A DNA stretch of 64,000 nucleotides from a bacterium (GTDB taxonomy: Bacteria; Pseudomonadota; Gammaproteobacteria; Burkholderiales; Thiobacillaceae). Both the position numbers and the translations under genes were made by a program. Position 1 is the stretch's first letter. Every line of letters starts with the position of its first letter. Location: positions 1 through 64,000 of the forward strand of contig WOUQ01000003.1 of NCBI GenBank assembly GCA_009772925.1, in the 5' to 3' direction. This document shows, piece by piece, positions 2,092-34,336 of this stretch. The notes under the pieces are model-generated. The model made no database searches and had not been told where the DNA came from. It saw only the letters and a list, made by a program, of their open reading frames with translations.

Positions 2092-2133
2092 GAGTAGCGA
2101 GTAGTGAGTGGTGAGTAGCGAGTAGTGAGTGCC
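2092..2133. repeat. Six-copy heptamer tract upstream of tldD
   Basis: On the plus strand this reads as consecutive 7-mers GAGTAGC, GAGTAGT, GAGTGGT, GAGTAGC, GAGTAGT, GAGTGCC, which also makes an imperfect 21-bp unit present twice. In the tldD mRNA sense the tract is C/T-rich. It occupies roughly -10 to -51 from the tldD ATG and leaves no recognisable ribosome binding site. It is one of four 7-bp-period tracts in the window. Confidence 0.85.
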
Positions 2134-2182
2134 GTGGGGGGAGTGGGTTCCCCCCGGTCCTCGTTACTCAGTCCTGAAAAGA

Positions 2183-3097
2183 TCAAGGTTTGATCACATC
2201 CACCGGCGTGCCGGCGGCGCAATCCAGGGTGCGATGCTTGAGGGCGGGGAGACTCTTGCGCAGGCTTTCCTGGTAGGCCCGGTTGATGCCGGCCACCACC
2301 ACGCCGGAGCCGCGTGGCAGGCGGTCGAGGATGTTGCCCCAGGGATCGACGATCATGGAGTCGCCATGGGTTTCCCGGCCGGAGATGTGGTAGCCGCCCT
2401 GCGCGGGGGCGATGACGTAGGCCAGGTTCTCGATGGCGCGGGCGCGCATCAGGATTTCGAAATGGGCCTTGCCGGTGGTGGCGGTGAAGGCCGCCGGCAC
2501 GACGATGAGGTCGACGTTGCCCATGGCCCGGTACAGCTCGGGGAAGCGCAGGTCGTAGCAGACCGACAGGCCCAGGCGGCCGAAGGGGGTTTCCACCACC
2601 ACCACGCGGTCACCGGCTTCGATGGTGGTCTGCTCCTTGTAATGCTCGTTGCCCAGGTCCAGGCCGAACAGGTGGATCTTGTCGTAGCGCGCCACCAGCT
2701 TGCCCTTGTCGTCGTAGACCAGGCAGGCGTTGCGCACTTTCTTCGGGTTGTCGCAGGCCAGCGGCACCGAACCGCCCACCAGCCAGATGCCGTGCTTCTT
2801 CGCCTGGGCGGCAAGGAATTTCTGGATCGGGCCCTTGCCCTCGACTTCCCGCACGTTGACCTTGTCGGTGTCCTTCATGCCCATGATGGCGAAGAACTCC
2901 GGCAGGGCCACCAGCTTGGCGCCGGCCGCCACGGCCATCTCGATGAGCCGTTCCGCCTCCGCCAGATTGGCGGCGACATTCGGGCCGGAAGCCATCTGCA
3001 CGGCGGCCACGCGCAGGACGCCGCCGCCATCGGGGGTGGACTTGGGGGTGGCGCGGGACTTGGTTTTCGCGAAGCTGGCGGAATTGGCGCGGGTCAC
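2183..3097 (-). CDS. Carbon-nitrogen hydrolase (nitrilase superfamily, Nit-like amidase)
   Basis: A cytoplasmic amidase of the nitrilase superfamily. The Nit1/NitFhit-like branch is known to hydrolyse deaminated glutathione and other omega-amides. The catalytic triad can be read in order: Glu in LVALPEFFA, Lys in YDKIHLFGLD, and Cys in GLSVCYDLRFPELYR. Length is 304 residues, a little long because of a basic N-terminal extension. The frame stays open to a TTG at 3178. I chose GTG at 3097 because GGAG lies six bases upstream, and the conserved domain (RVAAVQMASG) begins about 25 residues in. It sits between yhdP (77 bases upstream) and tldD, all leftward. The exact substrate cannot be told from sequence. 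Confidence 0.88.
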   Translation of the reverse strand: MTRANSASFAKTKSRATPKSTPDGGGVLRVAAVQMASGPNVAANLAEAERLIEMAVAAGAKLVALPEFFAIMGMKDTDKVNVREVEGKGPIQKFLAAQAKKHGIWLVGGSVPLACDNPKKVRNACLVYDDKGKLVARYDKIHLFGLDLGNEHYKEQTTIEAGDRVVVVETPFGRLGLSVCYDLRFPELYRAMGNVDLIVVPAAFTATTGKAHFEILMRARAIENLAYVIAPAQGGYHISGRETHGDSMIVDPWGNILDRLPRGSGVVVAGINRAYQESLRKSLPALKHRTLDCAAGTPVDVIKP

Positions 3098-3174
3098 GGA
3101 GGGCTCCGGCTGGATTGAGCGTGTTCGAGGGTACACAAGGATTTCATGCCACCGCAATAGCGCGCGGCGGGAAA

Positions 3175-6100
3175 TCAAGGGGGAGCGGGTTTGTCGCCGG
3201 CGCCCTCCGCCTTGCGGCGTGTGAGCTTGCTCACGTTTGGTTCCGCCCAGCTGCCGGTGACGGCGTATTCGAAGGTGGTGGCCTGGCCCACCGGGTCCTT
3301 CAGCACCTTGCCGGCGATGAAGGTGCCCAGGCCGACCGCCGGGCCGCCGAGCAATGCGCCCGCCACCGCCAGGGAATCGTCCAGCCGGGGTTGCACGCTG
3401 ACGCGCAGGTTCTGGCTTTCCCGCTGCAGGTCGATGACACCGCTCATCGACACGCGCGCGGCGGCGCCGTTCATGCGCAGGTTATTGGTGTAGGCGGAGC
3501 CGCGCTCCAGGTGGATGTTGCCGGTGATGTCCTGGAAGGCGAAGCCCTCGGAAAAGACGTCGCGGAAATCCAGGGCGATGCGCCGGGGCAGGGCCTGCAG
3601 GCTGACGATGCCGAGCAGCTTGGCGACGCCGGGATCAGCTTTGAGGAACTGGCCCTGGCGGACTTTCACGTCGAGGTCGCCGAACAGCGTGGCCAGGCTG
3701 AAGTCCTCCAGGCCGCCGGTCCAGCCGAGTTGGCCGCTGACCTGCATGGGGCCGTCCTTGACCAGGCCCGGCTTGCTCAGGTTGCCGAGCAACTTGCCAA
3801 GGCTGCCGCTGTCCAGTTTCAGGTCCATGCGCGTGGTCTGGCGCGGATGCTCGGCCAGCACGCCCTTGCCTTCCAGGCGGCTCTCCGGCATCGCCACCTT
3901 GAAATGTTCCACCTGGTAACCGCCGCGCGCGGGCGCCATGCGCAGGCGCAGGTCGGACAGTTCAAGTCCTTTCCAGGTGAGCTTGCCGACCACCAGATCG
4001 AGGGCGCCGAGCGAGGCGTCGGTGCGCTCGCTGGGGGCCGGGGAGGCGCCGGGTTCCGCGTCAGGCAGGGCGAGGTGTTTGAAATTCGCCAGCACGCGGG
4101 TCTTGCCGTTTTCCGGCACGGTGGTGACTTCGCCCACCACCTCGCGGCCGGCCAGGTTCACCTGCCAGCCGTTTCCGGCGGGGCGCAGGCGCACGCTGGT
4201 GTCGTGCAGGCGGCGGCCGAGCACGCGCGCCTCGTTGAAGGTGACCTGGGCGCCGCGCAGGGGGGCATCCTCGCCGCCCTGCCCCTCGGCGCCTTCGTGC
4301 AGCCGTAGGGCGAGCCAGGCATCGAGATCGATGAAGCGCAGGTTGCCGCTGATCCACAGGCCCGGGTCGGTGGGCGCCGGCGCATCGCCGGGACCCAGCC
4401 GCACCTGGATCTTCGCGGGCACATCGCGCACCAGTTCGGCGCGCAACGCCATCTGCTCGCCATAGCGGACATGCAGGCTGGAGCGCGCGTCGTCCTCCGG
4501 CCGCCGGGTCATGCGCAGGGGAATGGTGTCGGCGGCATTCTTGCCCAGCGGCGCGGGCAGGTTGACGCGCAGGCCCGTCAGGTCGGAGGTGACGGTGAAT
4601 TCCATGCGGCCGTCGGCATTCAGGCCGATGTCCGCGCGCCAGTCGGTGGCGCCGCTCAGCCGCTCGGCCAGGGCATCCGGCATTTCGGGTTTGAGCAGGT
4701 CGGCGCCGATGCGTCCGCGTGCGCCGATGCGCACCCCGCCCGTCTGGCCCGGCGCGCCGCCACCGCTGAGGTCCACCAGGGCCGGCATGCCCGCGACCTG
4801 GACGCGCACGTCCTTGGCCTGCAAGTCCTTGTCGGTGAACTGCACGGTGCCGTTGATCGCCTCGATGAGCGGCAGGCTGCCGCCGGGTTCCAGCCGGTTG
4901 TCCTGCATGCTGAAGCTGCCGCTGACGGTGGTGGCCTCCAGCCTGCGCACCGGCAGGCGCAGGCGCAGGGACAGCGCACCCCGGCCGTGCGCCTTGAACG
5001 GCGCGGTGAAGCCATCGGTATAGGCGTGTACCGGCGACTGGCGGATGAAATCCAGGAAGGACTGGGTGTCGCCCTGGACCTGTCCGTCCACCAGCACGAC
5101 CTCGTCCCAGGTATGCACCAGGTCGGGAATCACCACCTTCACCGCGCCGATGCGGGTGGCCAGGATGCTGCCGGAGTTGGCCTCCAGGGTCATGGCCTTG
5201 TCGTGGAACCGCAGTTGGCCGTGGATGTTGCGGATCAGCGGCCAATCCGGCGCGTACCTGAGCACGCCGTTCACCATGTTGATGGCGATGTTGAAGGTGC
5301 CGCCGCCCTGATCGAAGGGGAAACGCTCGAGATCGCCGCGCAGGGTCAGGCGGACGTCGTCGGAATGGCCACCCAGCAGGCTGTCGCGCAGCCACGCGTA
5401 GGCGTCCTCGCCCACCGCGTGGGGCAGGTAGCGGTACACCGCAGTGGCCTGGCCATGACTCAGGCGGGCGCCGAGGTCGACCCGCGCGGAGCCGGTGCGG
5501 GGCAGCTCGATGCGGCCTTGCGCACTGCCCTCCAGGTCGGCGTTGGCGATGCGCTCGACGTCGAAATCCAGGCGCAGGCCATCCTTCCCGGCCCGCCAGT
5601 CGGCGCGGGCGTCCAGGTGGCTGAAGGCGAGGGCATGGCGGAACACCCGGGGCCAGTCCAGGTGCAGACCGGGGCTGTCCAGTTCGGCGCGGCCCTCGTC
5701 CTGGTTGGCCTGGACGCGGGCGGACAGGCCGGAGATTCCGGGCAGATTGCCGTAGGCCTGGGCGCCGGCCTCGCGCAGGCGCAGCTTCAGGCTGTAGCGA
5801 CCGTCGCTTTCCCAGTGTCCCTCGCCGCTTTCCACCAGGCCGCGCGGCTTCAGGGTGTCGAGCAGGTCGCGGCCCTGGCGCGGCAGGGGCAGGGCGCTGG
5901 CGAGGGCGGTGACGGTTTCCAGGCGCAGGTTGCTGGCGGTGGCGCCTACGCGGCGGTAACCGCCCTTGCCGTCCGGCGCCAGGCTCAGCCGGAGCGAGGC
6001 GGGCTCGCTCTGGGTGATGCCGGCGCGCTGGAAACGCAGCTTCTCCACGAAATAACTCTGGCTGTCGCGGTCGCGCGACCAGCCGATGCGCCCGCCCAGG

Positions 6101-6996
6101 CTGTCGAAGACCATGTCCGGCAGGTCAGGGTGCAGATTGATCACCACTTCTTCCAGGCGGGCGTCGCCGAGCAGGCCGGAGGCCTCTCCATTCTTGACGT
6201 CCAGCCAGAAACGCAGGTTGCCGACGCCACCCTTCACCGATCCCTGCGCCCAGGGTACCCAGCGGCCCCACTGGTCCAGACGGGCGTCATCGACGCGGGC
6301 ATAGGCCTCGCCGTTCCAGGAGGTTAAATCCTGCACGCCGCGGCCGCGGAAGTCGCCGCGCAGTTCCAGGCGGCCGGCGGCATCGCTGTCGGGCAGGGCG
6401 ACGCCGCCGAAGCGATGGCGGCCGAAACGGTTTTCCAGCAGCAGCCGTACCTTCGAGAACCTCAGTTGCGGCGCCTCCAGTTTCTCGTCCAGCCAGGTGA
6501 GCTCGGCATCCTTGACCAGGATGCGCGGCTGGCGCAGCAGCCAGTCCGGGAAGGGGCTGGGCTCGCCGGCCGTGTTCAACGGGATGCCGGCCAAGGTGAT
6601 GAGGCCGGCGGCATCGCGGCGCACCGCGACTTGCGGGCGGTCGATGAGCAGGTGCGCCAGGCGCATGTCGAACAGCGGCAGCGACAGCCAGGAACCCACC
6701 GCTTCCACGCGCGGCAGCAGCAGCGGCGCGCCGGCGGGCGGCTGGATGCGCACGTCGCGCAGCACCACGCGCGGATTGAGGCCGTGCCAGTCGGCTTCCA
6801 GGGCGCCGACGTCGACGGGCTGGCCCACCGCGGCGCTGGCCGCTTCTTCCAGCAGGCCTTCGTAGGCGGAAATGTTCGGCAGGATCCAGAAGCGCAGGGC
6901 CAGGGCGACCACGCACACCGCGAAGACGGCACCGCCCACGACATAGAAAGCGTAGTGGTAGGCGTGGCGCAGGAGCTTGATGACGCGGGGTGTCAT
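3175..6996 (-). CDS. yhdP: YhdP family AsmA-like inner-membrane bridge protein
   Basis: A 1273-residue protein with one N-terminal membrane anchor (about residues 15-37, after the basic HAYHY segment) and a very long periplasmic part made of AsmA/DUF3971-type repeats. In E. coli the YhdP, TamB and YdbH proteins form periplasmic bridges that carry phospholipid to the outer membrane. The opening RFWILPNISAYEG and the closing LTRRKAEGAGD region are typical of this family (TIGR02099, from memory). Length agrees with the E. coli protein. It precedes the nitrilase and tldD genes, the same order as yhdP-tldD in enterics. The ATG at 6996 is supported by the position of the anchor. Confidence 0.93.
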   Translation of the reverse strand: MTPRVIKLLRHAYHYAFYVVGGAVFAVCVVALALRFWILPNISAYEGLLEEAASAAVGQPVDVGALEADWHGLNPRVVLRDVRIQPPAGAPLLLPRVEAVGSWLSLPLFDMRLAHLLIDRPQVAVRRDAAGLITLAGIPLNTAGEPSPFPDWLLRQPRILVKDAELTWLDEKLEAPQLRFSKVRLLLENRFGRHRFGGVALPDSDAAGRLELRGDFRGRGVQDLTSWNGEAYARVDDARLDQWGRWVPWAQGSVKGGVGNLRFWLDVKNGEASGLLGDARLEEVVINLHPDLPDMVFDSLGGRIGWSRDRDSQSYFVEKLRFQRAGITQSEPASLRLSLAPDGKGGYRRVGATASNLRLETVTALASALPLPRQGRDLLDTLKPRGLVESGEGHWESDGRYSLKLRLREAGAQAYGNLPGISGLSARVQANQDEGRAELDSPGLHLDWPRVFRHALAFSHLDARADWRAGKDGLRLDFDVERIANADLEGSAQGRIELPRTGSARVDLGARLSHGQATAVYRYLPHAVGEDAYAWLRDSLLGGHSDDVRLTLRGDLERFPFDQGGGTFNIAINMVNGVLRYAPDWPLIRNIHGQLRFHDKAMTLEANSGSILATRIGAVKVVIPDLVHTWDEVVLVDGQVQGDTQSFLDFIRQSPVHAYTDGFTAPFKAHGRGALSLRLRLPVRRLEATTVSGSFSMQDNRLEPGGSLPLIEAINGTVQFTDKDLQAKDVRVQVAGMPALVDLSGGGAPGQTGGVRIGARGRIGADLLKPEMPDALAERLSGATDWRADIGLNADGRMEFTVTSDLTGLRVNLPAPLGKNAADTIPLRMTRRPEDDARSSLHVRYGEQMALRAELVRDVPAKIQVRLGPGDAPAPTDPGLWISGNLRFIDLDAWLALRLHEGAEGQGGEDAPLRGAQVTFNEARVLGRRLHDTSVRLRPAGNGWQVNLAGREVVGEVTTVPENGKTRVLANFKHLALPDAEPGASPAPSERTDASLGALDLVVGKLTWKGLELSDLRLRMAPARGGYQVEHFKVAMPESRLEGKGVLAEHPRQTTRMDLKLDSGSLGKLLGNLSKPGLVKDGPMQVSGQLGWTGGLEDFSLATLFGDLDVKVRQGQFLKADPGVAKLLGIVSLQALPRRIALDFRDVFSEGFAFQDITGNIHLERGSAYTNNLRMNGAAARVSMSGVIDLQRESQNLRVSVQPRLDDSLAVAGALLGGPAVGLGTFIAGKVLKDPVGQATTFEYAVTGSWAEPNVSKLTRRKAEGAGDKPAPP

Positions 6997-7038
6997 GGTG
7001 GCATCAACAATGCCACGCGGCGGGCGTGGAATAAAGCC

Positions 7039-8076
7039 TCAAACCGCCCAGCGGGCCAGAGCGGCGCGCAGCGCGGGGCCATCCAGCGTGGCGAAGTCAT
7101 CGCGGGAGGAGACCGCGAACACGCCGGCCATCTCGCTCCAGCCGAAGCCGCCGCTCCAGGCCTCGAGGGCGACCTCGCCCTGGCGCGCGCGCGGGATCAG
7201 CAGCAGGCCGTCGCCGTCGTAGATCAGGTTGTAGGCGGTGCCGGCGCGGTGCAGCGCATCAAGATGAAACCAGGCCTCGCGCGTGTCCCGGTGCCGCTGC
7301 GCGGCCAGCGGATAGGCCGCCGCGCCGGCTTGCGCGGGCAGCGGCGCGTCGCGCACGAAACTCTGGAAATGCAGGTGATTGACCGAAGCGAAGGCGCCGA
7401 AGCTGTTGTAGGCCAGGCCGAAGCCCGCTATCGCGGCGGCGGCCGCGCCGGCGACGCGCCAGGCCCAGTCGTGCATTTCCGGTGTGAGGAGCTGCGGCCG
7501 TTCCTGTTCCGGTTCCGGCACCAGCAGGCCGTGCAGCGGCGCGAAGGGAAACTTGTTGTACAGCAGCCGGGCAGGCTTGCCCGCCAGTTCACCGCGCCAC
7601 AGCACTTCCTTGTCCAGGAAGGGCTTGTTGAAGTGGAAGCCGCGCGCGTCGAAGGGCCGCGCGATGCCCTCGACGCGTTCGCGGCTCATGCGCTCGGGCC
7701 GCAGGGCTCGCAGCGGATTGAACTGGAGCTCCCAGGCCGGCAGGGCTTGCATGGGGTCGGCCGGCACGCGGCGCGATTCGACGGCTGCGAGATGCGGGAA
7801 ACCGATGGCCATCAGCTTCAGGAACACCGTCACGTCGTCCGCCGCCGCCGCCGGCGCGCGGCCAGTTCGCAGCGCCGCGCCGGCGCGCTCGGCATGACGC
7901 GTGTGGCTCTCCTCGAGGGCAACACGCAGGCCGTGCCAGAGCGCGGCGTCCTGTACGGCGTTGGCCAGCACGAGAATGTGCGTGCCGAGTTCGTCATGGG
8001 CGGCCAGCATGGCCTGCAGGCCGGTGTTGAAGAGCTCTTCGAGGTGGGCGCGCGAGGCGAACGGCGGGAACCTCAT
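7039..8076 (-). CDS. HIT-superfamily nucleotidyl transferase/phosphorylase-like protein
   Basis: A 345-residue cytoplasmic protein. Residues 233-238 read NHLHFQ, the His-x-His-x-Gln active-site core of the HIT superfamily, in the arrangement of GDP-sugar phosphorylases and ATP adenylyltransferases. Other landmarks are WELQFNPLRALRPE (about 115-128) and FHFNKPFLDKEVLW (about 147-160), as in DUF4922/VTC2-like proteins. Enzymes of this fold transfer a nucleotide through a histidine intermediate; the substrate is unknown. The start ATG at 8076 overlaps the stop of the upstream phosphatase/ADP-ribosylglycohydrolase gene as ATGA, so the two are translationally coupled. That suggests a shared pathway acting on nucleotide sugars or ADP-ribose. 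Confidence 0.8.
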   Translation of the reverse strand: MRFPPFASRAHLEELFNTGLQAMLAAHDELGTHILVLANAVQDAALWHGLRVALEESHTRHAERAGAALRTGRAPAAAADDVTVFLKLMAIGFPHLAAVESRRVPADPMQALPAWELQFNPLRALRPERMSRERVEGIARPFDARGFHFNKPFLDKEVLWRGELAGKPARLLYNKFPFAPLHGLLVPEPEQERPQLLTPEMHDWAWRVAGAAAAAIAGFGLAYNSFGAFASVNHLHFQSFVRDAPLPAQAGAAAYPLAAQRHRDTREAWFHLDALHRAGTAYNLIYDGDGLLLIPRARQGEVALEAWSGGFGWSEMAGVFAVSSRDDFATLDGPALRAALARWAV

Positions 8077-9666: not shown

Positions 9667-13344
<3,678 letters not shown>

Positions 13345-23715: not shown

Positions 23716-23716
23716 C

Positions 23717-25501: not shown

Positions 25502-27322
25502 ATGAGCGACCCCACCCCCTCCGGCCAGGCCGGCTTCGACCCGGCGCCTATCCTGAAATCCCTGCCCAGCCTGCCGGGGGTGTACCGCATGCTCGGCGAG
25601 GACGGGGCGGTGCTGTACGTGGGCAAGGCGCGGGACCTGAAGAAGCGGGTGTCGAGCTATTTCCAGAAGACCGGCCTGAGCCCGCGCATCCAGTTGATGG
25701 TGGCGCGCATCCGCGATGTGCAGACGACGGTGACGCGCACGGAAGGCGAGGCGCTGCTGCTGGAAAACAATCTGATCAAGGGGTTGGCGCCCAGGTACAA
25801 CATCCTGTTCCGGGACGACAAGTCCTATCCCTACCTGCTGCTTTCCGGCCACGACTATCCGCGCCTGGGCTTCTTCCGCGGCACGCCGGAGCGGCGGCAC
25901 CGGGTGTTCGGTCCCTTTCCGCATTCGCTGGCGGTGCGCGAGAGCATCCAGATCCTGCAGAAGGTATTCCGCCTGCGCACCTGCGAGGACACGGTGTTCG
26001 CCAACCGTTCGCGGCCCTGTCTGCTGTTTCAGATCAAGCGTTGCAGCGGGCCCTGCGTCGGCCGGGTGTCGGCGGTGGACTACGCGCGCGACGCGGAGAA
26101 TGCCGCCCTGTTCCTGGAGGGCAAGGACAACGAGGTGGTGGCGGGGCTCACGGCGCGCATGCAGGCCGCGGCGGCGGCGCTGCGCTACGAGGAGGCGGCG
26201 CTCTACCGCGACCAGATCCAGGCGCTGGCGCAGGTGCGGGCGGTGCAGTTCGTGGAAAGCCGTTCCACCGGGGACGTCGATGTGATCGCGGCGGTGGCGC
26301 GCGGCGGGCTGGCCTGCGTGTACCTCGCCATGGTGCGCGGCGGCCGCAGCCTGGGCGGGCGCGCCTTCTTTCCCAGCCAGGCGGAGGACAGCGATCTGCC
26401 CGGCCTGCTGGAGGCCTTCGCCGGCCAGCATTACGTGGGCTACCCCATCCCCTCCGTGCTGGTGCTGGAATGCGCCGTGGAGGGACTGGCCGAGGCGCTC
26501 GCGGAGCAGGCCGGCCGGCGCGTGCAGGTGGTGGTCCACCCGCAAGGCGAACGCCGGGTGTGGCTGGAGATGGCGCGGAAGAACGCGGAACTGGCCCTGG
26601 CCACCCGGGAGGGGCTGCGCGAGAACCAGTCCAACCGCCTGGCCGCGCTGAACGAGGCGCTGGGCGAGGAGGGCATCGCCCGCATCGAGTGCTTCGACGT
26701 GAGCCACACGCTGGGCGAGGCGACGGTGGTGTCCTGCGTGGTGTTCGACCAGGGCGCCATGTGCAATGCGGAATACCGCCGCTTCAACGTCGCCAACCCG
26801 ACGCCGGGTGACGATTACGCCGCGCTGCGCGAGGCGCTGTCCCGCCGCTACGGAAAGCTGGCGCAGGGCGAGGGCAAACTGCCGGACCTGCTGCTGATCG
26901 ACGGCGGCAAGGGCCAGTTGCACGTGGCGGTGGACGTGCTCACGGAACTCGGCCTGGGCGACCTGCCCATGCTGGGGGTGGCCAAGGGCGTCGAACGCAA
27001 GGCGGGCCAGGAGCAGCTTTTCCTGCCCGGCGAGGTGGAGCCCCTGCGATTGCCGCCGGACCATCCCGGCCTGCACCTGATCCAGCAGGTGCGCGACGAG
27101 GCGCACCGCTTCGCCATCACCGGCCACCGCGCCCGGCGCGGCAAGGCGCGCACGCAGTCGAGCCTGGAGGACATCGCCGGTGTGGGCGCGAAAAGACGGC
27201 AGAAACTGCTGCAAGCCTTCGGCGGCCTGCGCGGCGTGATCGACGCGGGCGTGGAGGAACTGGCGCGCGTGGAGGGCATCAGCCGGGAACTGGCGGAAAG
27301 GATCTATCGGGAACTACACTGA
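25502..27322 (+). CDS. uvrC: Excinuclease ABC subunit C
   Basis: UvrC makes the two incisions of nucleotide excision repair. The 606 residues show the N-terminal GIY-YIG nuclease (GVYRMLGEDGAVLYVGKARD), the cysteine-rich link (CLLFQIKRCSGPCVGRV), the UVR motif region (YEEAALYRDQIQAL), the RNase H-like endonuclease domain (IECFDVSHTLGE and LLLIDGGKGQL), and C-terminal helix-hairpin-helices (IAGVGAKRRQKLLQAFGG). Length is normal. I chose ATG 25502, which opens MSDPTPSGQAGFDPAPI; an upstream TTG at 25433 is open but unsupported. uvrC-pgsA-tRNA order is conserved in proteobacteria. Confidence 0.97.
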   Translation: MSDPTPSGQAGFDPAPILKSLPSLPGVYRMLGEDGAVLYVGKARDLKKRVSSYFQKTGLSPRIQLMVARIRDVQTTVTRTEGEALLLENNLIKGLAPRYNILFRDDKSYPYLLLSGHDYPRLGFFRGTPERRHRVFGPFPHSLAVRESIQILQKVFRLRTCEDTVFANRSRPCLLFQIKRCSGPCVGRVSAVDYARDAENAALFLEGKDNEVVAGLTARMQAAAAALRYEEAALYRDQIQALAQVRAVQFVESRSTGDVDVIAAVARGGLACVYLAMVRGGRSLGGRAFFPSQAEDSDLPGLLEAFAGQHYVGYPIPSVLVLECAVEGLAEALAEQAGRRVQVVVHPQGERRVWLEMARKNAELALATREGLRENQSNRLAALNEALGEEGIARIECFDVSHTLGEATVVSCVVFDQGAMCNAEYRRFNVANPTPGDDYAALREALSRRYGKLAQGEGKLPDLLLIDGGKGQLHVAVDVLTELGLGDLPMLGVAKGVERKAGQEQLFLPGEVEPLRLPPDHPGLHLIQQVRDEAHRFAITGHRARRGKARTQSSLEDIAGVGAKRRQKLLQAFGGLRGVIDAGVEELARVEGISRELAERIYRELH

Positions 27323-27352
27323 GCCGACGCGCTAGAATTCCAGCGCCTCCCC

Positions 27353-27380
27353 TTTTCCCGTTTCCCTTTTCCCTTTTCCG
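27353..27380. repeat. TTTTCCC/GTTTCCC heptamer tract touching the pgsA start
   Basis: Four consecutive 7-mers, TTTTCCC, GTTTCCC, TTTTCCC, TTTTCCG, end on the first base of the pgsA GTG codon. No purine-rich ribosome binding site remains between repeat and start. The core unit equals that of the tract inside metH, but here it is in the opposite sense relative to the gene. Confidence 0.85.
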
Positions 27381-27955
27381 TGCCCTTCAACCTGCCCAAC
27401 GCGCTCACCTGGCTGCGCATCCTGCTCATCCCCCTGTTCGTGGCGGTGTTCTACCTGCCCGACGGCTGGGTGCCCAAGCACGCCATCAACGTTACCGCCA
27501 CGGGCATCTTCCTGCTGGCTTCGGTGACCGACTGGCTGGACGGCTGGCTGGCGCGGCGCCTCAACCAGATGTCGGCTTTCGGCGCGTTTCTCGATCCGGT
27601 GGCGGACAAGCTGATGGTGGCGGCGGCGCTGATCGTGCTGGTGGACTTGCAGCGGGCGGGCATCGCCGCCTCGCTCATCATCATCGGCCGCGAGATCGCC
27701 ATCAGCGCCCTGCGCGAGTGGATGGCCAAGGAAGGCCAATCCCGCAGCGTGGCGGTGTCCTACGTCGGCAAGCTGAAGACCACGGCGCAGATGCTGGCCA
27801 TCACCCTGTTGCTCTACCACGATCCGTTCGCCGGCCTGAGCGCGCAATGGCTGGGACGCTGGCTGCTCGACCTGGCGGCCTTCCTCACGCTCTGGTCGAT
27901 GTTCCACTACCTGTTCATGGCCTGGAAGGCGCTGAAACACTCGCCCGCCAGTTGA
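27380..27955 (+). CDS. pgsA: CDP-diacylglycerol--glycerol-3-phosphate 3-phosphatidyltransferase
   Basis: PgsA makes phosphatidylglycerophosphate, the committed step towards phosphatidylglycerol and cardiolipin, at the inner membrane. The 191 residues contain the CDP-alcohol transferase signature Asp-Gly-x2-Ala-Arg...Gly...Asp...Asp, read here across DWLDGWLARRL and FGAFLDPVADK. Several hydrophobic segments are present, as expected. The start is GTG at 27380: the opening PFNLPNALTWLRILLIPLF matches family N-termini, and the codon directly abuts a heptamer repeat. The stop codon lies within the -35 hexamer of the tRNA promoter. Confidence 0.96.
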   Translation: MPFNLPNALTWLRILLIPLFVAVFYLPDGWVPKHAINVTATGIFLLASVTDWLDGWLARRLNQMSAFGAFLDPVADKLMVAAALIVLVDLQRAGIAASLIIIGREIAISALREWMAKEGQSRSVAVSYVGKLKTTAQMLAITLLLYHDPFAGLSAQWLGRWLLDLAAFLTLWSMFHYLFMAWKALKHSPAS

Positions 27956-28247: not shown

Positions 28248-28301
28248 GCATGCGGGCCCTCCCCTCGGAGGGGATTAAAGTCTGCCGCCCGATTGCCGTT
28301 A

Positions 28302-28326
28302 ACGCGTACGTGGATACGTGTTTTTT
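28302..28326 (+). terminator. Intrinsic terminator abutting the riboswitch aptamer
   Basis: ACGCGTA (28302-28308) and TACGTGT (28315-28321) form a seven-base stem with one G-T pair, followed directly by TTTTT (28322-28326). The first aptamer base is the next nucleotide. It may insulate the riboswitch from tRNA read-through. The region 28248-28301 also holds a small CCCCTC/GAGGGG palindrome and nothing else I can name. Confidence 0.5.
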
Positions 28327-28412: not shown

Positions 28413-28566
28413 GGATCGTGAAACCGCGCGCGACGGCGGTTTCCACTGTTCATGACTTGCATATTCCGTCATCCTCAGCATGCGGTGATTCGCACGGGTA
28501 TCCGTTGTGATGGGCGCGCGCGTCGAGCCGAACACGCAGGCGCGGCGGCCGCCGGAGGATAGGGCA

Positions 28567-30981
28567 ATGCAAGACTCTCGCAAGAACAACGTTGTTGCGC
28601 TCAACCCGCTCGGCCAGGGCCGGGGCGCTTTGGGCGCGGATGCCGCGCGCATCCTCAACGAATGCGGCGAAATGGCGGCCGCGGGTTTTGCCACCGCCCT
28701 GGCGAAAGCCCTGGAACGGGCGGCGGGCGAACTCCTGGAACTGACCGACCGGGTGACGGAGTACGACTCCCGCCGGGTCTACGGCGCCGCCGCCGATTTC
28801 GCGCGGGATCAACGCGGCGCGGTGGAAACGGAATTCCGCCGCCGCTTCTACCAGCACTTCAAGCGCGCCTGCCGCCGCGACAACGCCCGGTCCGCGGGAC
28901 AAAGCGAACTGGACGCTGCGGAGCTCAGCCTGGTGGCGCCGGACGACCTCGAGGAATCCCTGGCGGCCAGCACCATCGAGAACGCCCTCAACAACCACTG
29001 CGGCGAGGAGCTGTTCGGCTTGGCCAAGCGCATGGGGGTGCTGCTGGACGATCCCGAATTGCAACTGGGTGCCAATCCCGTCGGCCCGGAGACCATAGGC
29101 GCTGCGGTCATGGACACCCTGAAGGCGCAGGACCTGCCGGTCAAGGCGCAACTCGTCCTGGTCCCCCCGATCAACCGTTTCCTCTCGCGCCACGTGCGCG
29201 AGGTCTACCAGGGCCTCAACCGCTACCTCGTCGATGCCGATGTGTTGCCCACCATCCGTGTCGGTGTCAGGAAAGCCGCGCCGACGCCGCGCCCGCAAGA
29301 CGCGCCCGAGAAACAGGCCGGAGTTGAAGCGCCGGCAGCCGTCGAGGAAGGCCAGGATATCTTCAACCTGTTGCGTCAGCTCATGGCCCTCGGCGGCATG
29401 GCTGGTGGCGGCGGCATCGGCGGTACTGTCGGCGGGCCGCCGGGCTTCGGTGGCATGCCGGGCATGGCGGCAACGGTTTTGCCGGGCGCGGCTGGCGGCA
29501 TGGCCGGCATGCTGACCGGCCAGGCCGGCGGCGCAGTCGTTGCAGCCCCGGTGATCACCAGCCTGACCCAGCTCCAGCGCGGGCAGGCCAAGGCGGTGGC
29601 GGCGGCGGGCCTGGACGGGGCCCGCATCAGCGACGGCCAGGTCAATATCCTGCGCGAGATCCGCAACAGCCCGGTGGCGGGCGGCATGGGCCAGATGGAT
29701 GCGATGACGCTGGACATCGTCGCCATGGTGTTCGACTTCATCCTCGACGACCGGCGCATTCCCGATGCCATGAAGGCCCTGATCGGTCGCCTGCAGATCC
29801 CGGTGCTGAAGGTGGCCATGCTGGACCCCGCCTTCTTCTCGCAGAAGACCCATCCCGCCCGCCGCCTGCTCGACGCGCTGGCCGAGGCCTCGATGGGCTG
29901 GAACGAGGACGAGGGCCACGAAAGCGAGCTGTATCGCAAGGTCGATGAGCTGGTCCAGCGCATCCTCAACCAGTTCGACGAGGACATGGATGTATTCGCC
30001 AGCGGGCTGGAGGATTTCCTCGGCTTCCTGGCCGAGGAAAAACAGCGCATCGATGCGCTCACCAGCCGCAGCGCGCAACTGCTGCGCCGGCGCGAACAGG
30101 GCGAACTGGGTCGCATCGTCGCCCACAACGAGGTGGAAAGCCATCTGTTCGACCAGCCCATGCCGGAGTTCATCCGCGCCTTCCTGCTGGGCCACTGGGA
30201 ACAGGTGCTGGCCACCCACTGCGCGCGCGACGGGGAAGGCGGGGAAACGTGGAATCAGGCCCTGCGCAGCATGGACGATCTGATCTGGAGCGTGCAGCCG
30301 AAGACTCGGCAGGATGACCGCAAGCGCCTGGTGGCCTTGCTGCCCGACCTGCTCAAGCGCCTGGACGAGGGTTTCCAGGTCCTCGACACGCCGGCGGAAA
30401 TTCGCGACCAGTTCTTCACCGGCCTGGTGAAGTGCCACGCCATGGCGGTGCGCGCGGGTCTGCGCGGTGCCGGGGATGCGCCGCTGCCGCCCGAGCCGGC
30501 GCCCATTCCGGCGCCGGCGCCGGCTGCGGCGCTGACGGGCGATGAGGATTTTGCCGAGATCCCGGTGCTGACCGAGGTGGTGGAAGTCGATCCCGATCTG
30601 ATCCAGGAAATCGCGGCCGAACCCGAGGAACGCACCGTGGTCGAGGAAATCGTCATCGGCGACGTGGGCTGGCTGGCGCGTGGCGGCGACACGCCCAGGC
30701 AGGACGAGCACGATCTGCAGGTGCAGAAAATCAAGCGGGGAACCTGGATCGAATACACCCAGGACGACGGTTCCACGGTGCGCGCCAAGCTGGCCTGGGT
30801 CAGCCCGCTGAAGGGCATCTATCTGTTCACCAACCGGCTGGGCCAGCGCGCCATGTCCATCCAGGGCGCCGGCCTGGCCGCCAAGTTCCGCCAGGGCCAG
30901 GCGCGGATCATCGACGATGTGCCGCTGATGGAGCGCGCGGTCAGCAATCTCCTGGAAAAACTCCAGCAGAAGGTGTCCTAG
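28567..30981 (+). CDS. DUF1631 family protein, PilZ-like C-terminus, under c-di-GMP riboswitch
   Basis: A 804-residue cytoplasmic protein of the DUF1631 family, whose function is not established. Most of it is helical, with a Gly/Met-rich linker around residues 275-325 (GGMAGGGGIGG type). Residues about 720-790 (QKIKRGTWIEYTQDDGS, then AKLAWVSPLKGIYLFTNRLG) look like a PilZ-type beta barrel, though the RxxxR c-di-GMP motif is not obvious. The start at 28567 has GGAGG eight bases upstream. A GTG at 28507 is also in frame but lacks such a site. The gene lies 154 bases beyond a c-di-GMP-I aptamer, so its expression should respond to c-di-GMP. ygiD follows after five bases. Confidence 0.9.
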   Translation: MQDSRKNNVVALNPLGQGRGALGADAARILNECGEMAAAGFATALAKALERAAGELLELTDRVTEYDSRRVYGAAADFARDQRGAVETEFRRRFYQHFKRACRRDNARSAGQSELDAAELSLVAPDDLEESLAASTIENALNNHCGEELFGLAKRMGVLLDDPELQLGANPVGPETIGAAVMDTLKAQDLPVKAQLVLVPPINRFLSRHVREVYQGLNRYLVDADVLPTIRVGVRKAAPTPRPQDAPEKQAGVEAPAAVEEGQDIFNLLRQLMALGGMAGGGGIGGTVGGPPGFGGMPGMAATVLPGAAGGMAGMLTGQAGGAVVAAPVITSLTQLQRGQAKAVAAAGLDGARISDGQVNILREIRNSPVAGGMGQMDAMTLDIVAMVFDFILDDRRIPDAMKALIGRLQIPVLKVAMLDPAFFSQKTHPARRLLDALAEASMGWNEDEGHESELYRKVDELVQRILNQFDEDMDVFASGLEDFLGFLAEEKQRIDALTSRSAQLLRRREQGELGRIVAHNEVESHLFDQPMPEFIRAFLLGHWEQVLATHCARDGEGGETWNQALRSMDDLIWSVQPKTRQDDRKRLVALLPDLLKRLDEGFQVLDTPAEIRDQFFTGLVKCHAMAVRAGLRGAGDAPLPPEPAPIPAPAPAAALTGDEDFAEIPVLTEVVEVDPDLIQEIAAEPEERTVVEEIVIGDVGWLARGGDTPRQDEHDLQVQKIKRGTWIEYTQDDGSTVRAKLAWVSPLKGIYLFTNRLGQRAMSIQGAGLAAKFRQGQARIIDDVPLMERAVSNLLEKLQQKVS

Positions 30982-30986
30982 CGCAT

Positions 30987-31772
30987 ATGTCCGCGCCCAT
31001 GCCCGCCCTGTTCGTCGGCCATGGCACGCCGATGAACACGCTGGAGCGCAACGTGAACAGCCGCGCCTGGCGCGACATCGCGGCCGAACTGCCGAGACCC
31101 GGGGCGATCCTGGCGATCTCGGCGCACTGGTATGGACCCGGCCTGGCGGTCACCGCCAGCGAACAGCCCGCCACCCTGCACGATTTCAGGGGATTCCCGC
31201 GCGAGCTTTTCGAGTTCCGCTATCCGGCGCCCGGCGATCCCGCCCTCGCCGAGCGCGTCGCCGCCCTGCTGGCGCCGCTTCCCGTCGACTCCGACCTGGA
31301 GTGGGGACTGGACCACGGTACCTGGTCGGTCCTCGCCCATCTTTTTCCGGGCGCCGATATCCCGGTGGTGCATCTGCGTCTGGACAGCACCCGCCCAACC
31401 GCCTGGCATGCCGATCTGGCGCGGCGTCTGGCGCCGCTGCGCGAGGAGGGCGTATTGCTGCTGGGCAGCGGCAACGCGGTGCACAACCTGCGGCGCATGG
31501 ATCTGGCTAGCGCGGAAAGCACGTTCGCCTGGGCGGATCGTTTCAACACGCGAGTGCGCGAGGCCCTGCTGGGCATGGATGTCGACGCGCTGGTGGACCT
31601 GGCGGCGGCCGACATCCCGGACGAGGACGCGCGCTTGGCCGTGCCGACGCCCGAACATTACCTGCCGCTGCTCTACATCGCCGCGCAGTGGCGCGAAGGC
31701 GAGGCCGTCCGCTTGTTCAACGACCGCATCGAGTACGGCTCCATCGGCATGCTGTGTTGCCGGGTGGGCTGA
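30987..31772 (+). CDS. ygiD: Class III extradiol dioxygenase, DODA/YgiD type
   Basis: A 261-residue cytoplasmic dioxygenase of the LigB superfamily, in the group of 4,5-DOPA dioxygenase and E. coli YgiD. Metal-ligand histidines can be seen in LFVGHGTPMN, AISAHWYGPG and the C-terminal TPEHYLPLLYI, with GLDHGTWSVL between them. Length matches the family. The true substrate is usually unknown in bacteria. It begins five bases past the DUF1631 stop, so it may share the riboswitch-controlled transcript. It ends exactly where the convergent pyrC ends. Confidence 0.93.
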   Translation: MSAPMPALFVGHGTPMNTLERNVNSRAWRDIAAELPRPGAILAISAHWYGPGLAVTASEQPATLHDFRGFPRELFEFRYPAPGDPALAERVAALLAPLPVDSDLEWGLDHGTWSVLAHLFPGADIPVVHLRLDSTRPTAWHADLARRLAPLREEGVLLLGSGNAVHNLRRMDLASAESTFAWADRFNTRVREALLGMDVDALVDLAAADIPDEDARLAVPTPEHYLPLLYIAAQWREGEAVRLFNDRIEYGSIGMLCCRVG

Positions 31773-32801
31773 TCACAGCAGGCGCCAGGCAAGCGTCTCC
31801 CCGGCCCTGAGCGGCACCACGCCGGAGGGATGATCGGCCGCCACCGGGGTGTTTTCCCGCACCAGGGTGACGGGTTCCGTGTTGCGCGGCAGGCCGTAGA
31901 AATCCGGGCCGTAATGGCTGGCGAAGGCTTCCAGCCTGTCGAGGGCGCCGGCACCGTCGAAGATTTCCGCGTACAACTCCAGGGCGGCGTGCGCCGTGTA
32001 GATGCCGGCGCAGCCGCAGGCCGATTCCTTCGCCTCCCTGGCGTGCGGGGCGCTGTCGGTGCCCAGGAAGAACTTGGCGTTGCCGCCGGTGGCGGCCTCC
32101 AGCAGGGCGAGCCGGTGGATCTCGCGCTTGAGCACGGGCAGGCAGTAATAGTGCGGGCGCATGCCGCCCTGAAACATGGCGTTGCGGTTGTAGAGGAGGT
32201 GATGCGCGGTGATGGTCGCGGCCACGTTGGCCGGCGCCGTCGCCACGAACTCGGCGGCGTGGCGGGTGGTGATGTGTTCCAGCACGATCTTGAGGCACGG
32301 CAGGCGCTGCACGAGGGGCAGCAGGATGCGTTCGATGAATACCGCTTCGCGATCGAACACGTCGACGCCGGGATCGGTGACCTCGCCATGCAGCAGGAGG
32401 GGCAGCCCGGCTTCCTGCATGGCTTCCAGCACGGCCTGCACGCGATGGATGTCGGTGACGCCGGAATCCGAGTGGGTGGTGGCGCCGGCCGGGTAGTACT
32501 TCACCGCCTTGACGAAGCCGCTGGCCACGGCCCTGGGGATTTCCGCCGGATCGGTATTGTCGGTCAGGTAGAGGGTCATCAGCGGCTCGAAGCGCATGCC
32601 GGCGGGCAGGGCGGCGAGGATGCGGTCGCGGTAGGCGGCGGCCTCGGCGACGCTGCGCACCGGCGGCTTCAGGTTGGGCATGACGATGGCGCGCGCGAAA
32701 CGCCGGGCGGTGTCGGGCAGCACGGCGGCCAGCATGGCGCCGTCGCGCAGATGCAGGTGCCAGTCGTCCGGGCGGGTGAGGGTCAGGCGGTCCATGCTCA
32801 T
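31773..32801 (-). CDS. pyrC: Dihydroorotase
   Basis: PyrC closes carbamoyl aspartate to dihydroorotate in pyrimidine synthesis. The 342-residue class II enzyme shows the zinc-binding HLHLRDG near the N-terminus, the carbamylated-Lys region [14 protein letters not shown], the histidines in [10 protein letters not shown] and [12 protein letters not shown], and the late Asp in [14 protein letters not shown]. The ATG at 32801 overlaps the rsmI stop as ATGA, so the two are translationally coupled. An internal ATG six bases on is an alternative start. The stop directly adjoins that of ygiD on the other strand. Confidence 0.97.
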
Positions 32802-33661
32802 TCCTCTTTCTTCATAGACAGAGCGAGATCGTACAGCGCGTTCTTGCGCGCGCCGCTGAGCCGCGCGGCCAGATGGGCGGCCTGCCGCACCGGCAGTTCC
32901 TCCAGCAGGATACGCAGGATTTGCCGCGCCTCGACGTCGTCCTCGCTGCCGGCGGCGCGCGCGGGCGGCGAGACGACGAGGACGAATTCACCGCGCCGGT
33001 GGTGTTCGTCCTCCGCCAGCCAGGCCGGCGCGGATGCCAGCGGGCAACGATGGACCTGCTCGAAACGTTTGGTGAGCTCGCGCGCGATGAGGAGTTCGCG
33101 CTCGCCACCCAGAATTTCGAGCAGGTCGCCGATACATTCCTCGATGCGGTGAGGCGCCTCGTACAGCACCAGGGCGCAGGGCAGGGCGGCGAGATCGCGC
33201 AGGGCCTGGCGGCGGGCGGCGGATCGGGCCGGCAGGAAACCGACGAACAGCCAGGGATCTTCCATGCCCGCTACCGAAAGGGTGGCGGTGACCGCGCTGG
33301 CGCCCGGGATGGGGCTTACCGGCAGGCCCGCGGCCCGCGCCGCGGCGACCAGGCGGGCGCCGGGATCGGAGATGCCCGGCGTGCCGGCATCCGAGATGTA
33401 GGCCACGCTTTTTCCGGCCCGCAGGGCCTCCACCAAGCGCGTGGCGGCGGCGGCCTCGTTGTGCTCGTGCAGCGCGAACAGCCGCGCGCGGATGCCGTGG
33501 GCGGCGAGCAGGGTCTGGCTGGCGCGGGTGTCCTCCGCCGCGATGAGATCGGCGGTGCGCAGCACGTCCAGGGCGCGCAGGCTGATGTCGCGCAGGTTGC
33601 CGATGGGGGTGGCGACGATGTGCAGGGTGCCGGGCCTCGCCGGTTGGGGGGTGTCGAACAT
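32798..33661 (-). CDS. rsmI: 16S rRNA (cytidine-1402-2'-O)-methyltransferase RsmI
   Basis: RsmI methylates the 2'-oxygen of C1402 in 16S rRNA. The 287 residues begin with the tetrapyrrole-methylase-like signature [19 protein letters not shown] and continue with [25 protein letters not shown] and [16 protein letters not shown], all typical. The frame is open upstream to 33937, but that part is a translation of the dispersed repeat and is not coding. ATG 33661 gives the usual N-terminus. It is divergent from yraN, as is common, and coupled to pyrC downstream. Confidence 0.96.
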
Positions 33662-33746
33662 GGGGCTTGTGCGGGTAACCTGACGGCAGTGTAGCGAACT
33701 CGCATGGCTGGGTGGCCGTTCCGTGTCACGTAAGTTGTCGGCCAGC

Positions 33747-33821
33747 CATGCGTGTTCCCTCACCCCCTGCCCCTCTCCCGCTTGCGGTAGAGGGGAGCTT
33801 CGAGAAGTCGCTGCGTGACTT
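33747..33821 (+). repeat. Dispersed repeat, copy B (between rsmI and yraN)
   Basis: A second member of the family at 20218 and 44729. It has TTCCCTCACCCCCTGCC, the hairpin CCCCTCTCCCGC/GCGGTAGAGGGG with one mismatch region, the constant GAGCTTCGAGAAGTCG, and a second short hairpin AAGTC/GACTT. It lies 24 bases before the yraN ATG, which has its own GGGAGG site in between. Confidence 0.9.
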
Positions 33822-33845
33822 GCATGGGAAAGGGAGGCGGACGAC

Positions 33846-34193
33846 ATGGGCAGGGATGCTGCATCCATCGGCGCGGCTGCCGAACGGCAGGTGGCCGAGT
33901 TCCTGACACGGCATGGCCTGAAGCCGGTGGCGAGCAATTACCGCTGCCGTGGCGGTGAAGTCGATCTGGTCATGCGGGAGGGCGAAGTCCTGGTGTTCGT
34001 GGAAGTGCGCGCGCGTGCGTCTTCACGTTTCGGTGGCGCGGCGGAGAGCATCACCCCCGCCAAGCGGGCGCGCCTCATCCTGGCGGCGCGCCACTATCTG
34101 GCCCGTCATGGCGTGGACGCACCCTGCAGATTCGACGCGGTGCTGCTGGATGGTGGCGAATTGACCTGGATCAGGAACGCTTTCGAGACCTGA
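33846..34193 (+). CDS. yraN: YraN family (UPF0102) endonuclease-like protein
   Basis: A 115-residue protein of the UPF0102 family, which has a restriction-endonuclease-like fold. The signature elements are GAAAERQVAEFLTRHGL, NYRCRGGEVDLVMREGEVLVFVEVR (Glu-Asp then Glu-x-Arg, the PD-(D/E)xK-type core) and AESITPAKRARL. Role is unknown, although the gene is widespread beside rsmI and diaA, as here. GGGAGG lies eight bases before the ATG at 33846. diaA follows after 148 bases that contain a promoter element and the large heptamer tract. Confidence 0.93.
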   Translation: MGRDAASIGAAAERQVAEFLTRHGLKPVASNYRCRGGEVDLVMREGEVLVFVEVRARASSRFGGAAESITPAKRARLILAARHYLARHGVDAPCRFDAVLLDGGELTWIRNAFET

Positions 34194-34228
34194 TGGCTCG
34201 AAGCCGACGATCGTAAGGCAGTGCCCGC

Positions 34229-34234
34229 TATAAT
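34229..34234 (+). promoter_or_regulatory. Perfect -10 hexamer upstream of diaA
   Basis: TATAAT at 34229-34234 would start transcription at about 34241, the first base of the CACCCTT tract. No good -35 hexamer is seen at 15-19 bases upstream, so strength or an activator requirement is unknown. Confidence 0.5.
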
Positions 34235-34240
34235 TTTGCG

Positions 34241-34336
34241 CACCCTTCACCCTTCACCCTTCACCCTTCACCCTTCACCCTTCACCCTTCACCCTTCACC
34301 CTTCACCCTTCACCCTTCACCCTTCACCCTTCACCC
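34241..34336. repeat. CACCCTT heptamer x13.7, leader of diaA
   Basis: Thirteen perfect copies of CACCCTT run from 34241 to 34331, followed by CACCC and further C residues. The ATG of diaA is at 34342. The tract therefore forms nearly the entire predicted 5' leader, is all pyrimidine plus A, and displaces any Shine-Dalgarno sequence. Copy identity is perfect, which implies recent expansion. Confidence 0.97.

What the first reader, a model, noticed from the sequence alone, without database searches (positions are those of the whole stretch)
2092..34336. Heptamer repeat tracts recur directly before start codons
Four tracts with 7-bp period occur at 2092-2133, 10280-10307, 27353-27380 and 34241-34336. 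Three lie immediately upstream of tldD, pgsA and diaA, and in each the mRNA strand is pyrimidine-rich and no Shine-Dalgarno sequence is present. The unit differs (ACTACTC-like, TTTTCCC, CACCCTT), so this is not one transposed sequence. It may be a shared expansion mechanism with a length preference for seven, or an unusual class of translation leader.
Basis: partly seen in the sequence, partly recalled or inferred. Interest (0 to 1): 0.72.

Follow-up and report, generated by a model that had tools for sequence, protein, structure and literature searches.

The report
Seven-base repeat hairpins between operon genes
The seven-base repeats before start codons belong to a class of repeat elements, often paired into hairpins, that sit between neighbouring genes of a betaproteobacterial genus and carry different seven-base words from species to species, which makes an old puzzle about such repeats easier to test.

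Summary
The four tracts are real. Three end 0-9 nt before the called starts of tldD, pgsA and a diaA-like gene; the fourth lies inside metH. In 43.6% of the genome, period-7 tandem arrays number 34 against 0.3 in shuffles. All 24 intergenic ones share one polarity: C-rich before a start or G-rich after a stop. Many are arms of one structure: stop, G-rich heptamers, loop, C-rich heptamers, start. Of 40 strict heptad hairpins in this genome and its nearest relative (sampled), 40 lie between co-directional genes and 39 have the G-rich arm first. At orthologous slots with ~95% identical flanks the content is replaced in 10 of 19: the tldD slot has GAGTAGY here, ten CACCCTT copies in the relative. 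Other species of the genus carry other heptamers at shared slots. Placement matches GGGAATC repeats of Xanthomonas; quadruplex capacity does not generalise (17 of 40). Most likely this is a fast-turnover class of 7-nt repeat elements; the paired form may act as an RNA boundary between cistrons (inferred). The pgsA and diaA tracts are lone arms that this does not cover. A preference for seven is supported; a special translation leader is not shown.

The parts
2092..2130 (-). C-rich (sense) heptamer tract, GAGTAGY on + strand, ending 9 nt before the called tldD start; 3' side of the amidase|tldD slot
   Evidence: in the nearest relative G020 this slot holds GGGTAAA units and ten full CACCCTT copies instead
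2157..2175 (-). G-rich (sense) partial partner AGGACTGAGTAACGAGGAC between the amidase stop and the tract; pairing with the tract is imperfect
   Evidence: read; best inverted-repeat score of the slot only 8, below the threshold of 12
2083..2182 (-). whole intergenic slot amidase|tldD
   Evidence: gene calls, ortholog comparison
10278..10308 (-). (GGGAAAC)4 tract inside metH, in frame; the site is a length-variable stretch in which some other members of the genus carry other insertions
   Evidence: G020 has a same-length degenerate version
27350..27379 (+). lone C-rich arm (CCCNTTT)4 abutting the called GTG start of pgsA; no partner arm
   Evidence: same length, different seventh bases in G020
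27333..27338 (+). TAGAAT, -10-like hexamer upstream of the pgsA tract (by eye, not tested)
   Evidence: read
34241..34336 (+). lone C-rich arm (CACCCTT)13.7 ending 5 nt before the called diaA-like start; no partner arm
   Evidence: 3 full copies in G020 against 13 here
34229..34234 (+). TATAAT, -10-like hexamer 6 nt upstream of the CACCCTT tract, so the transcript may begin at the tract (by eye, inference)
   Evidence: read; conserved in G020
646..2082 (-). tldD
   Evidence: NF008006 over cut-off
2183..3097 (-). nitrilase/amidase-family gene upstream of tldD
   Evidence: deaminated glutathione amidase, below cut-off
9667..13344 (-). metH
   Evidence: NF007024, TIGR02082 over cut-off
25502..27322 (+). 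uvrC, upstream of pgsA
   Evidence: TIGR00194 over cut-off
27380..27955 (+). pgsA (GTG start as called)
   Evidence: TIGR00560 over cut-off
33846..34193 (+). yraN, upstream of the diaA-like gene
   Evidence: NF009150 over cut-off
34342..34920 (+). DiaA/GmhA-like protein (SIS type, recalled)
   Evidence: below both cut-offs

Best explanation
What it is (shown): the tracts belong to a class of elements found across the sampled genome, built of 7-nt tandem units and placed at gene borders with a fixed polarity: G-rich heptamers just after a stop codon, C-rich heptamers just before a start codon. In the full form both arms occur between two co-directional genes and form a hairpin whose arms are heptamer arrays. 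In the reduced form, as at pgsA and diaA, only one arm is present. The heptamer unit differs between sites and is often replaced wholesale at the same slot between close relatives, while slot, polarity and period stay. How it works (inferred): units are gained and lost in 7-nt steps (3 against 13 full copies at diaA), and arms are rewritten by slippage plus arm-to-arm copying. The paired form is kept between cistrons of operons such as ftsW|murG|murC and gap|pgk|pyk because the RNA hairpin separates the fates of neighbouring cistrons, most likely as a barrier to mRNA decay or a processing boundary, as REP-type hairpins do. Its sequence hardly matters, so different hairpin families replace each other. 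The lone arms are probably by-products of the same expansion process, tolerated in leaders.
For: Period 7: 34 arrays against 0.3 in shuffles; of 101 intergenic inverted repeats of score 12 or more, 40 have arms with period 7 and at most 7 any other period from 2 to 13 (period 14, the harmonic, 31); 0 strict heptad hairpins in 2,658 shuffled intergenic regions. Polarity: 24 of 24 intergenic arrays (10 of the 24 lie in the window or in stretches chosen for hits), 39 of 40 hairpins against 23 of 42 other co-directional inverted repeats, 26 of 26 heptad hairpins in four slots of the genus. Placement: 40 of 40 between co-directional genes (Fisher, co against convergent: p=0.002 relative to other inverted repeats, p=0.0099 relative to all intergenic regions); median 4 nt after the stop, 18 nt before the called start. 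Not intrinsic terminators: 1 of 40 has TTTT within 9 nt after the 3' arm. Slot kept, sequence replaced: 10 of 19 element slots unalignable between G000 and G020 against 11 of 68 other co-directional regions, p=0.002, at ~95% flank identity. gap|pgk slot: of 22 readable genomes, 11 hold a heptad hairpin, 10 another inverted repeat and 1 neither by the score used, yet all 22 give z below -2 on folding (limits under evidence against). Precedent: in E. coli 26 of 34 such decay sites follow a stable hairpin without U-tract (PMC5927463, passages).
Against: pgsA and diaA tracts have no partner arm, and the tldD slot here scores only 8 as an inverted repeat, so inside the window the hairpin reading fits at best one of three upstream tracts. 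10 of 34 arrays lie in coding sequence, where no RNA boundary is needed. The ftsW|murG slot has no detected inverted repeat in 15 of 23 genomes, so the element is dispensable there. Convergent inverted repeats are few (11), so the avoidance of convergent sites rests on small numbers, and 1 of 4 heptad hairpins in outside relatives is convergent. The z-scores were computed only on the hairpin span where one was found and are inflated by that choice; in G001 that span lies 72 nt downstream and in G013 the region is 1,214 nt long. 3 of the 40 hairpins and most G020 stretches were fetched because of GGGAAAN hits. No RNA data exist here; starts are from a home-made caller, and for murG the true start is probably upstream.
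Confidence: 0.45

Rival explanations
1. Mutational only: replication slippage with a 7-nt step, plus quasi-palindrome correction between arms, creates and rewrites the arrays; their place at gene borders is just where they are tolerated.
For: 10 of 34 arrays lie in coding sequence, including metH; copy number changes in 7-nt steps (diaA, L052 11043, L036 11634); loops of the GGGAAAN family are hardly more alike than shuffles (mean score 5.7 against 4.9), so whole elements were probably not copied; the ftsW|murG slot is often empty.
Against: Does not by itself explain the polarity (24 of 24, 39 of 40), the absence from convergent regions in this sample, or the same few units recurring at many sites of one genome and differing between species.
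Confidence: 0.3
2. Mobile palindromes of the REP kind, moved by a REP-associated tyrosine transposase or another enzyme and inserted between stop and start.
For: GTAGC-family elements share loop sequence (14.6 against 5.9 in shuffles) and in 2 of 3 same-family slots compared the loop aligns better inverted between species; other palindromes such as GTAGGAGCGGC occupy the same slots.
Against: G020, G010, G015 and G021, which carry heptad hairpins, have no Y1_Tnp match; genomes with REP-like content at pgk|pyk (13, assigned by eye) have more Y1_Tnp matches than the 7 with heptads (p=0.013, not corrected for kinship); loops of the largest family are not shared.
Confidence: 0.12
3. One reading: pyrimidine heptamers before a start codon bind S1 or a cold-shock protein and replace the Shine-Dalgarno.
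For: Lone C-rich arms abut the called starts of pgsA and diaA downstream of -10-like hexamers; TAACTGA heptamers of Beggiatoaceae sit the same way and CspB is said there to bind heptamer repeats (PMC4679880, passages).
Against: SD frequency after heptad hairpins not significantly lower (11 of 40 against 250 of 607); several hairpins are followed by an SD-like sequence (by eye); G-rich partner arms after stops are unexplained.
Confidence: 0.08
4. G-quadruplex elements as proposed for the Xanthomonas and Nostoc heptamers.
For: GGGAAAN, GGGTGAA and GGGTAAA units have G3 runs every 7 nt; 30 of 40 hairpins hold at least one GGG (or CCC) in an arm; the most frequent arm length is four units (17 of 40).
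Against: Only 17 of 40 hairpin regions contain a G3x4 pattern on either strand; units without GGG such as AGGACTG, AAGTGGC and GTCGAGA take the same slots.
Confidence: 0.04
5. RNA-templated addition of heptamers to DNA ends by a telomerase-like reverse transcriptase, since the geometry resembles two G-rich repeat ends joined head to head.
For: The G-rich 3' ends face each other in 39 of 40 hairpins; the GGGAAAN family recurs at many sites with unrelated loops.
Against: G020 (98% complete) has no RVT_1 match and G000 one weak match.
Confidence: 0.01

Closest known systems
GGGAATC / GGGGA(C/T)T heptamer repeats of Xanthomonas and Nostoc (Rehm et al. 2015, PMC4692102; abstract, Results and Discussion read)
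   Same: 7-nt units; preference for four units; mainly between aligned genes; G-rich strand antisense within 50 bp upstream of an ORF or sense within 50 bp of a stop; paired copies in convergent orientation forming inverted repeats; 83% of sites shared between two species, with length changes; no function found.
   Different: Here several unrelated units in one genome, 23 of 40 hairpin regions without a G3x4 pattern, and at the same slot the unit is often replaced between close relatives and across a genus; 0 of 40 between convergent genes against 16% there.
TAACTGA direct repeats of Beggiatoaceae (MacGregor 2015, PMC4679880; abstract, two sections and passages read)
   Same: Heptamer direct repeats within several nt before start codons, few Shine-Dalgarno sequences.
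   Different: One unit, unstructured, a single inverted repeat reported; here units vary and arms pair.
REP/BIME palindromes and REP transposases (recalled; PMC12306157 passages, PMC2817692 search listing only)
   Same: Palindromes close to gene ends inside operons; REP-like palindromes use the same slots in this genus.
   Different: Arms made of heptamer arrays; four carriers lack Y1_Tnp matches.
Intercistronic mRNA-decay barriers (malE-malF; PMC5927463, passages; puf seen there only as a reference title)
   Same: Stable hairpin without U-tract between co-transcribed genes, directly after the upstream gene.
   Different: Function and co-transcription not measured here; heptamer arms and fast replacement are extra.

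Membership tests
Xanthomonas/Nostoc G-rich heptamer repeats (PMC4692102) | unit GGGNATC or GGGGAYT | tested here: not met
   G000/G020 units are GGGAAAN, AGGACTG, AAGTGGC, GTAGCNN, GGGTGAA and others; one other genome of the genus, G015, shows GGGGAAT-like units at ftsW|murG by eye
Xanthomonas/Nostoc G-rich heptamer repeats (PMC4692102) | quadruplex-capable G3 x4 | tested here: not met
   met by 17 of 40 hairpin regions only, so not a feature of the class; G4 formation itself not testable here
Xanthomonas/Nostoc G-rich heptamer repeats (PMC4692102) | G-rich strand antisense before starts, sense after stops, close to the ORF | tested here: met
   24 of 24 intergenic arrays, 22 within 25 nt
Xanthomonas/Nostoc G-rich heptamer repeats (PMC4692102) | between aligned genes, often as convergent inverted pairs | tested here: met
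   40 of 40 strict hairpins co-directional
TAACTGA start-codon repeats (PMC4679880) | unit TAACTGA | tested here: not met
   no such unit among the arrays listed
TAACTGA start-codon repeats (PMC4679880) | rarely accompanied by a Shine-Dalgarno | tested here: inconclusive
   11 of 40 against 250 of 607, p=0.098
REP elements with RAYT transposase | REP transposase (Y1_Tnp) in the carrier genome | tested here: not met
   no match in G020, G010, G015, G021; G000 has 2, and other carriers have some
REP elements with RAYT transposase | copies of one sequence including the loop | tested here: inconclusive
   GGGAAAN loops unrelated, GTAGC loops related
Intercistronic mRNA-decay barrier | stable hairpin without U-tract between co-directional genes | tested here: met
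   (1 of 40 with a T-run)
Intercistronic mRNA-decay barrier | changes relative stability of the flanking cistrons | not testable with these tools
   needs RNA decay data
Phase-variable simple sequence repeat | length changes switch expression within a population | not testable with these tools
   only between-species copy changes seen

The most novel reading that the evidence does not exclude
Operons of this genus hold conserved intercistronic hairpin slots whose structure is under selection while their sequence is continually rewritten with species-specific 7-nt words, implying a dedicated or at least strongly 7-nt-biased rewriting process and a sequence-blind RNA function.
Probability: 0.25. 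Interest if true: 0.85.

Novelty: new variant of a known kind. Interest (0 to 1): 0.6.

Why it matters
The abundance of heptamer repeats in bacteria has been noted without a function. Here the same slots are filled with different heptamers, with other palindromes or with nothing in close relatives, which makes a natural experiment: shared features (period 7, polarity, co-directional setting) can be separated from incidental ones (G-quadruplex capacity, a given unit, a given transposase). If the hairpins set mRNA decay boundaries, this is an example of structure kept under wholesale sequence replacement, which alignment-based RNA searches would miss.

Tried and rejected
Telomerase-like or retroelement origin: no RVT_1 match in G020 and one weak match in G000. 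REP transposase as the common driver: no Y1_Tnp match in four heptad carriers. G-quadruplex as the common denominator: 17 of 40. Leader without Shine-Dalgarno: difference not significant. Copying of whole elements for the GGGAAAN family: loops unrelated. Intrinsic terminators: 1 of 40 with a T-run; a looser either-side test on the 11 convergent inverted repeats gave 3. Wider spread: in 79 loci of named relatives (1.29 Mb) only 4 heptad hairpins among 447 intergenic regions, 3 co-directional and 1 convergent, and GGGAAAN triples in 4 of 300 genomes of the order, this one included. One slot table dropped loci lying on the minus strand and was replaced. A test of enriched 6-mers showed TTTCCC before starts (29 against 7 for its complement) among many GC-rich words. 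A tree of Pgk plus MurG proteins was printed with cut labels and is not used. Published accounts: searches listed, by title, no other paper on such hairpins than the two heptamer papers cited; the library lacks most subscription journals, so this is weak evidence of novelty.
Full report
Observation. The four tracts exist at the stated places (sequence). Three end 9, 0 and 5 nt before the called starts of tldD, pgsA and a DiaA/GmhA-like gene; the fourth is in frame inside metH. To test chance I sampled 1,405,504 bases (101 stretches with the window, 43.6% of the 3.22 Mb draft genome G000; 50,858 are N). Perfect runs of at least 20 bp and 2.5 copies, periods 4-30: period 7 has 26, period 8 two, 9 eight, 10 one, 14 two, 18 one, all others none. 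With a mismatch-tolerant score and periods 4-15, period 7 has 34 arrays against a mean of 0.3 in 20 shuffles that permuted codons in genes and dinucleotides elsewhere. Leaving out the window and three stretches chosen for hits, it has 22. Period 14 has 12 (partly the same arrays). Coding-related periods also exceed their shuffles (6: 9 against 3.6; 9: 15 against 2.4; 12: 14 against 2.05; 15: 7 against 2.15), but by far less than period 7. The preference for seven is real.

Where the arrays lie. Of 34 period-7 arrays 10 are in called coding sequence and 24 intergenic, although 87.5% of the sample is called coding. All 24, assigned to the nearest gene border, obey one polarity: 14 are C-rich and within 25 nt before a start codon, 10 are G-rich after a stop (8 within 25 nt); none has the opposite polarity. 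By the list, 10 of the 24 lie in the window or in the three stretches chosen for hits. Reading the intergenic regions on the sense strand shows the plan: stop, G-rich heptamers, a loop (6 to 50 nt in the strict set), C-rich heptamers, start. Units include GGGAAAN, AGGACTG/GAGTAGC, AAGTGGC/AAGTCGC, GTAGCNN and GGGTGAA/GGGTAAA.

Statistics of hairpins. In the G000 sample plus the G020 stretches, with a home-made gene caller, 101 intergenic regions of 20-400 nt hold an inverted repeat of score 12 or more; 40 have arms with period 7 (22 in G000, 18 in G020), and at most 7 have any other period from 2 to 13. All 40 lie between co-directional genes (intergenic regions: 647 co-directional, 155 divergent, 84 convergent), 39 have a G-rich 5' arm (other co-directional inverted repeats 23 of 42), with median 4 nt after the stop and 18 nt before the called start. 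None of 2,658 shuffled regions gives one. One of 40 has TTTT within 9 nt after the 3' arm. Downstream genes have a 4-mer Shine-Dalgarno in 11 of 40 cases against 250 of 607, p=0.098. Three of the 40 lie in stretches of G000 chosen for hits, and 13 of 20 G020 regions were placed on GGGAAAN hits, so the share of that family is inflated.

Turnover at fixed slots. G020 is the public MAG 'Betaproteobacteria bacterium isolate K_DeepCast_150m_m1_387': its contig 11 has the length of VGVT01000011.1 and the overlap I sampled is identical at every 60-mer that could be checked (40 of 95 lie in the overlap). Of 87 orthologous co-directional regions, 19 hold a heptad array or hairpin in either genome; 9 of 19 are alignable against 57 of 68 others (p=0.002), with flanks about 95% identical. 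Examples: ftsW|murG GGGAAAN against AAGTCGC; murG|murC GGGAAAN against GTAGC; gap|pgk GGGAAAT against AAGTGGC; pgk|pyk GGGAAAC against a GTAGGAGCGGC palindrome (gene names). In the window: tldD GAGTAGY against GGGTAAA plus ten CACCCTT copies; diaA 13 against 3 full copies; pgsA same length with different seventh bases. The metH tract has a same-length degenerate version in G020, and some other members of the genus carry other insertions there.

Across the genus. Two genes, pgk and murG, each flanked by two slots, were followed through 23 genomes, with laxer limits than (score 10, 55% match). Of 52 slot sequences with an inverted repeat, period 7 marks 26 and any other period at most 3. I count 26 heptad hairpins in 13 of 23 genomes, all with a G-rich 5' arm, in about a dozen unit families grouped by eye; other slots carry other palindromes or no inverted repeat. 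Folding gave z below -2 at gap|pgk in 22 of 22, at pgk|pyk in 19 of 22, at murG|murC in 9 of 15, at ftsW|murG in 9 of 22 (where an inverted repeat was found only its span was folded, which inflates z; in G001 and G013 the span at gap|pgk is not the element next to the stop). GGGAAAN triples occur in G000 and G020 only among the 23 and in 4 of 300 genomes sampled over the order. Named relatives outside have few such hairpins (4 of 447 regions).

Mechanism. Shown: 7-nt unit gain and loss between species; replacement of content at kept slots; fixed polarity; exclusive co-directional setting in the strict sample of the two genomes. Inferred: slippage with a 7-nt bias plus copying between arms makes and rewrites the arrays. 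Loops are unrelated in the GGGAAAN family and related in the GTAGC family, where in 2 of 3 slots compared the loop aligns better inverted between species, so more than one route may act. Inferred too: the paired form works as an RNA boundary between cistrons, in line with stable hairpins without U-tracts at 26 of 34 decay sites with a stabilised upstream part in E. coli (PMC5927463, passages). Against it: pgsA and diaA have lone arms, the tldD slot pairs poorly here, ten arrays are in genes, and the ftsW|murG slot is often empty.

Known relatives. Rehm et al. 2015 (PMC4692102) describe GGGAATC repeats of Xanthomonas with the same placement and inverted pairs, propose quadruplexes and find no function. 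MacGregor 2015 (PMC4679880) describes TAACTGA repeats before start codons. This case shares their placement, fails their unit and quadruplex criteria as a class, and adds unit replacement at fixed slots. I found no account of that in searches of an open-access library, judged from the listings.

Caveats. The genomes are drafts, many of them metagenome-assembled, so tract lengths may be wrong. Genes and starts come from my own caller; for murG the true start is probably upstream, since the called start removes the first strand of the protein (recalled knowledge). Sampling was by stretches, not complete.

Noticed in passing
window 10278-10308; loci L122, L125, L130: One position of MetH is a repeat-insertion spot in the genus: different genomes carry different in-frame translated repeats there (for example SRESGNPG-like and PPPPGEGLGVR-like).
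   Followed up: partly
L288-L309, gap|pgk slot: Between the element and pgk a leader of about 60 nt (GTGAGCCGTAAGGCCTGAG...AAGGAGCACCCAA) recurs with small changes in most genomes of the genus and looks like a structured regulatory leader.
   Followed up: no
L029 9750, L067 13131 versus L240, L236: GTAGC-family hairpins whose central GC-rich loop aligns better in inverted orientation between G000 and G020.
   Followed up: partly
L269 (G004) versus L264 (G000), ftsW|murG: In G004 the ftsW stop overlaps a possible murG start (ATGA), whereas in G000 a 119-nt hairpin region follows the stop and the murG start codon is unclear.
   Followed up: partly
genus, pgk|pyk slot: Genomes with a GTAGGAGCGGC-like palindrome at this slot have more Y1_Tnp matches than those with heptad hairpins (p=0.013, not corrected for kinship).
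   Followed up: partly
window 37260-37678: Tandem repeats of 18, 36 and 39 bp (GGTCTGGGCAACCCGCTG and others) in a possible low-complexity coding region.
   Followed up: no
L030 8998-9139 (G000 contig 32): Long double tract: about 11 CACCCTT copies followed by about 10 CCCTTTT copies, ending 2 nt before a called start codon.
   Followed up: no
L142 14397-14545: A Thiobacillus MAG carries about 21 copies of the heptamer GGTCAGC with a partner arm, a different unit again.
   Followed up: no
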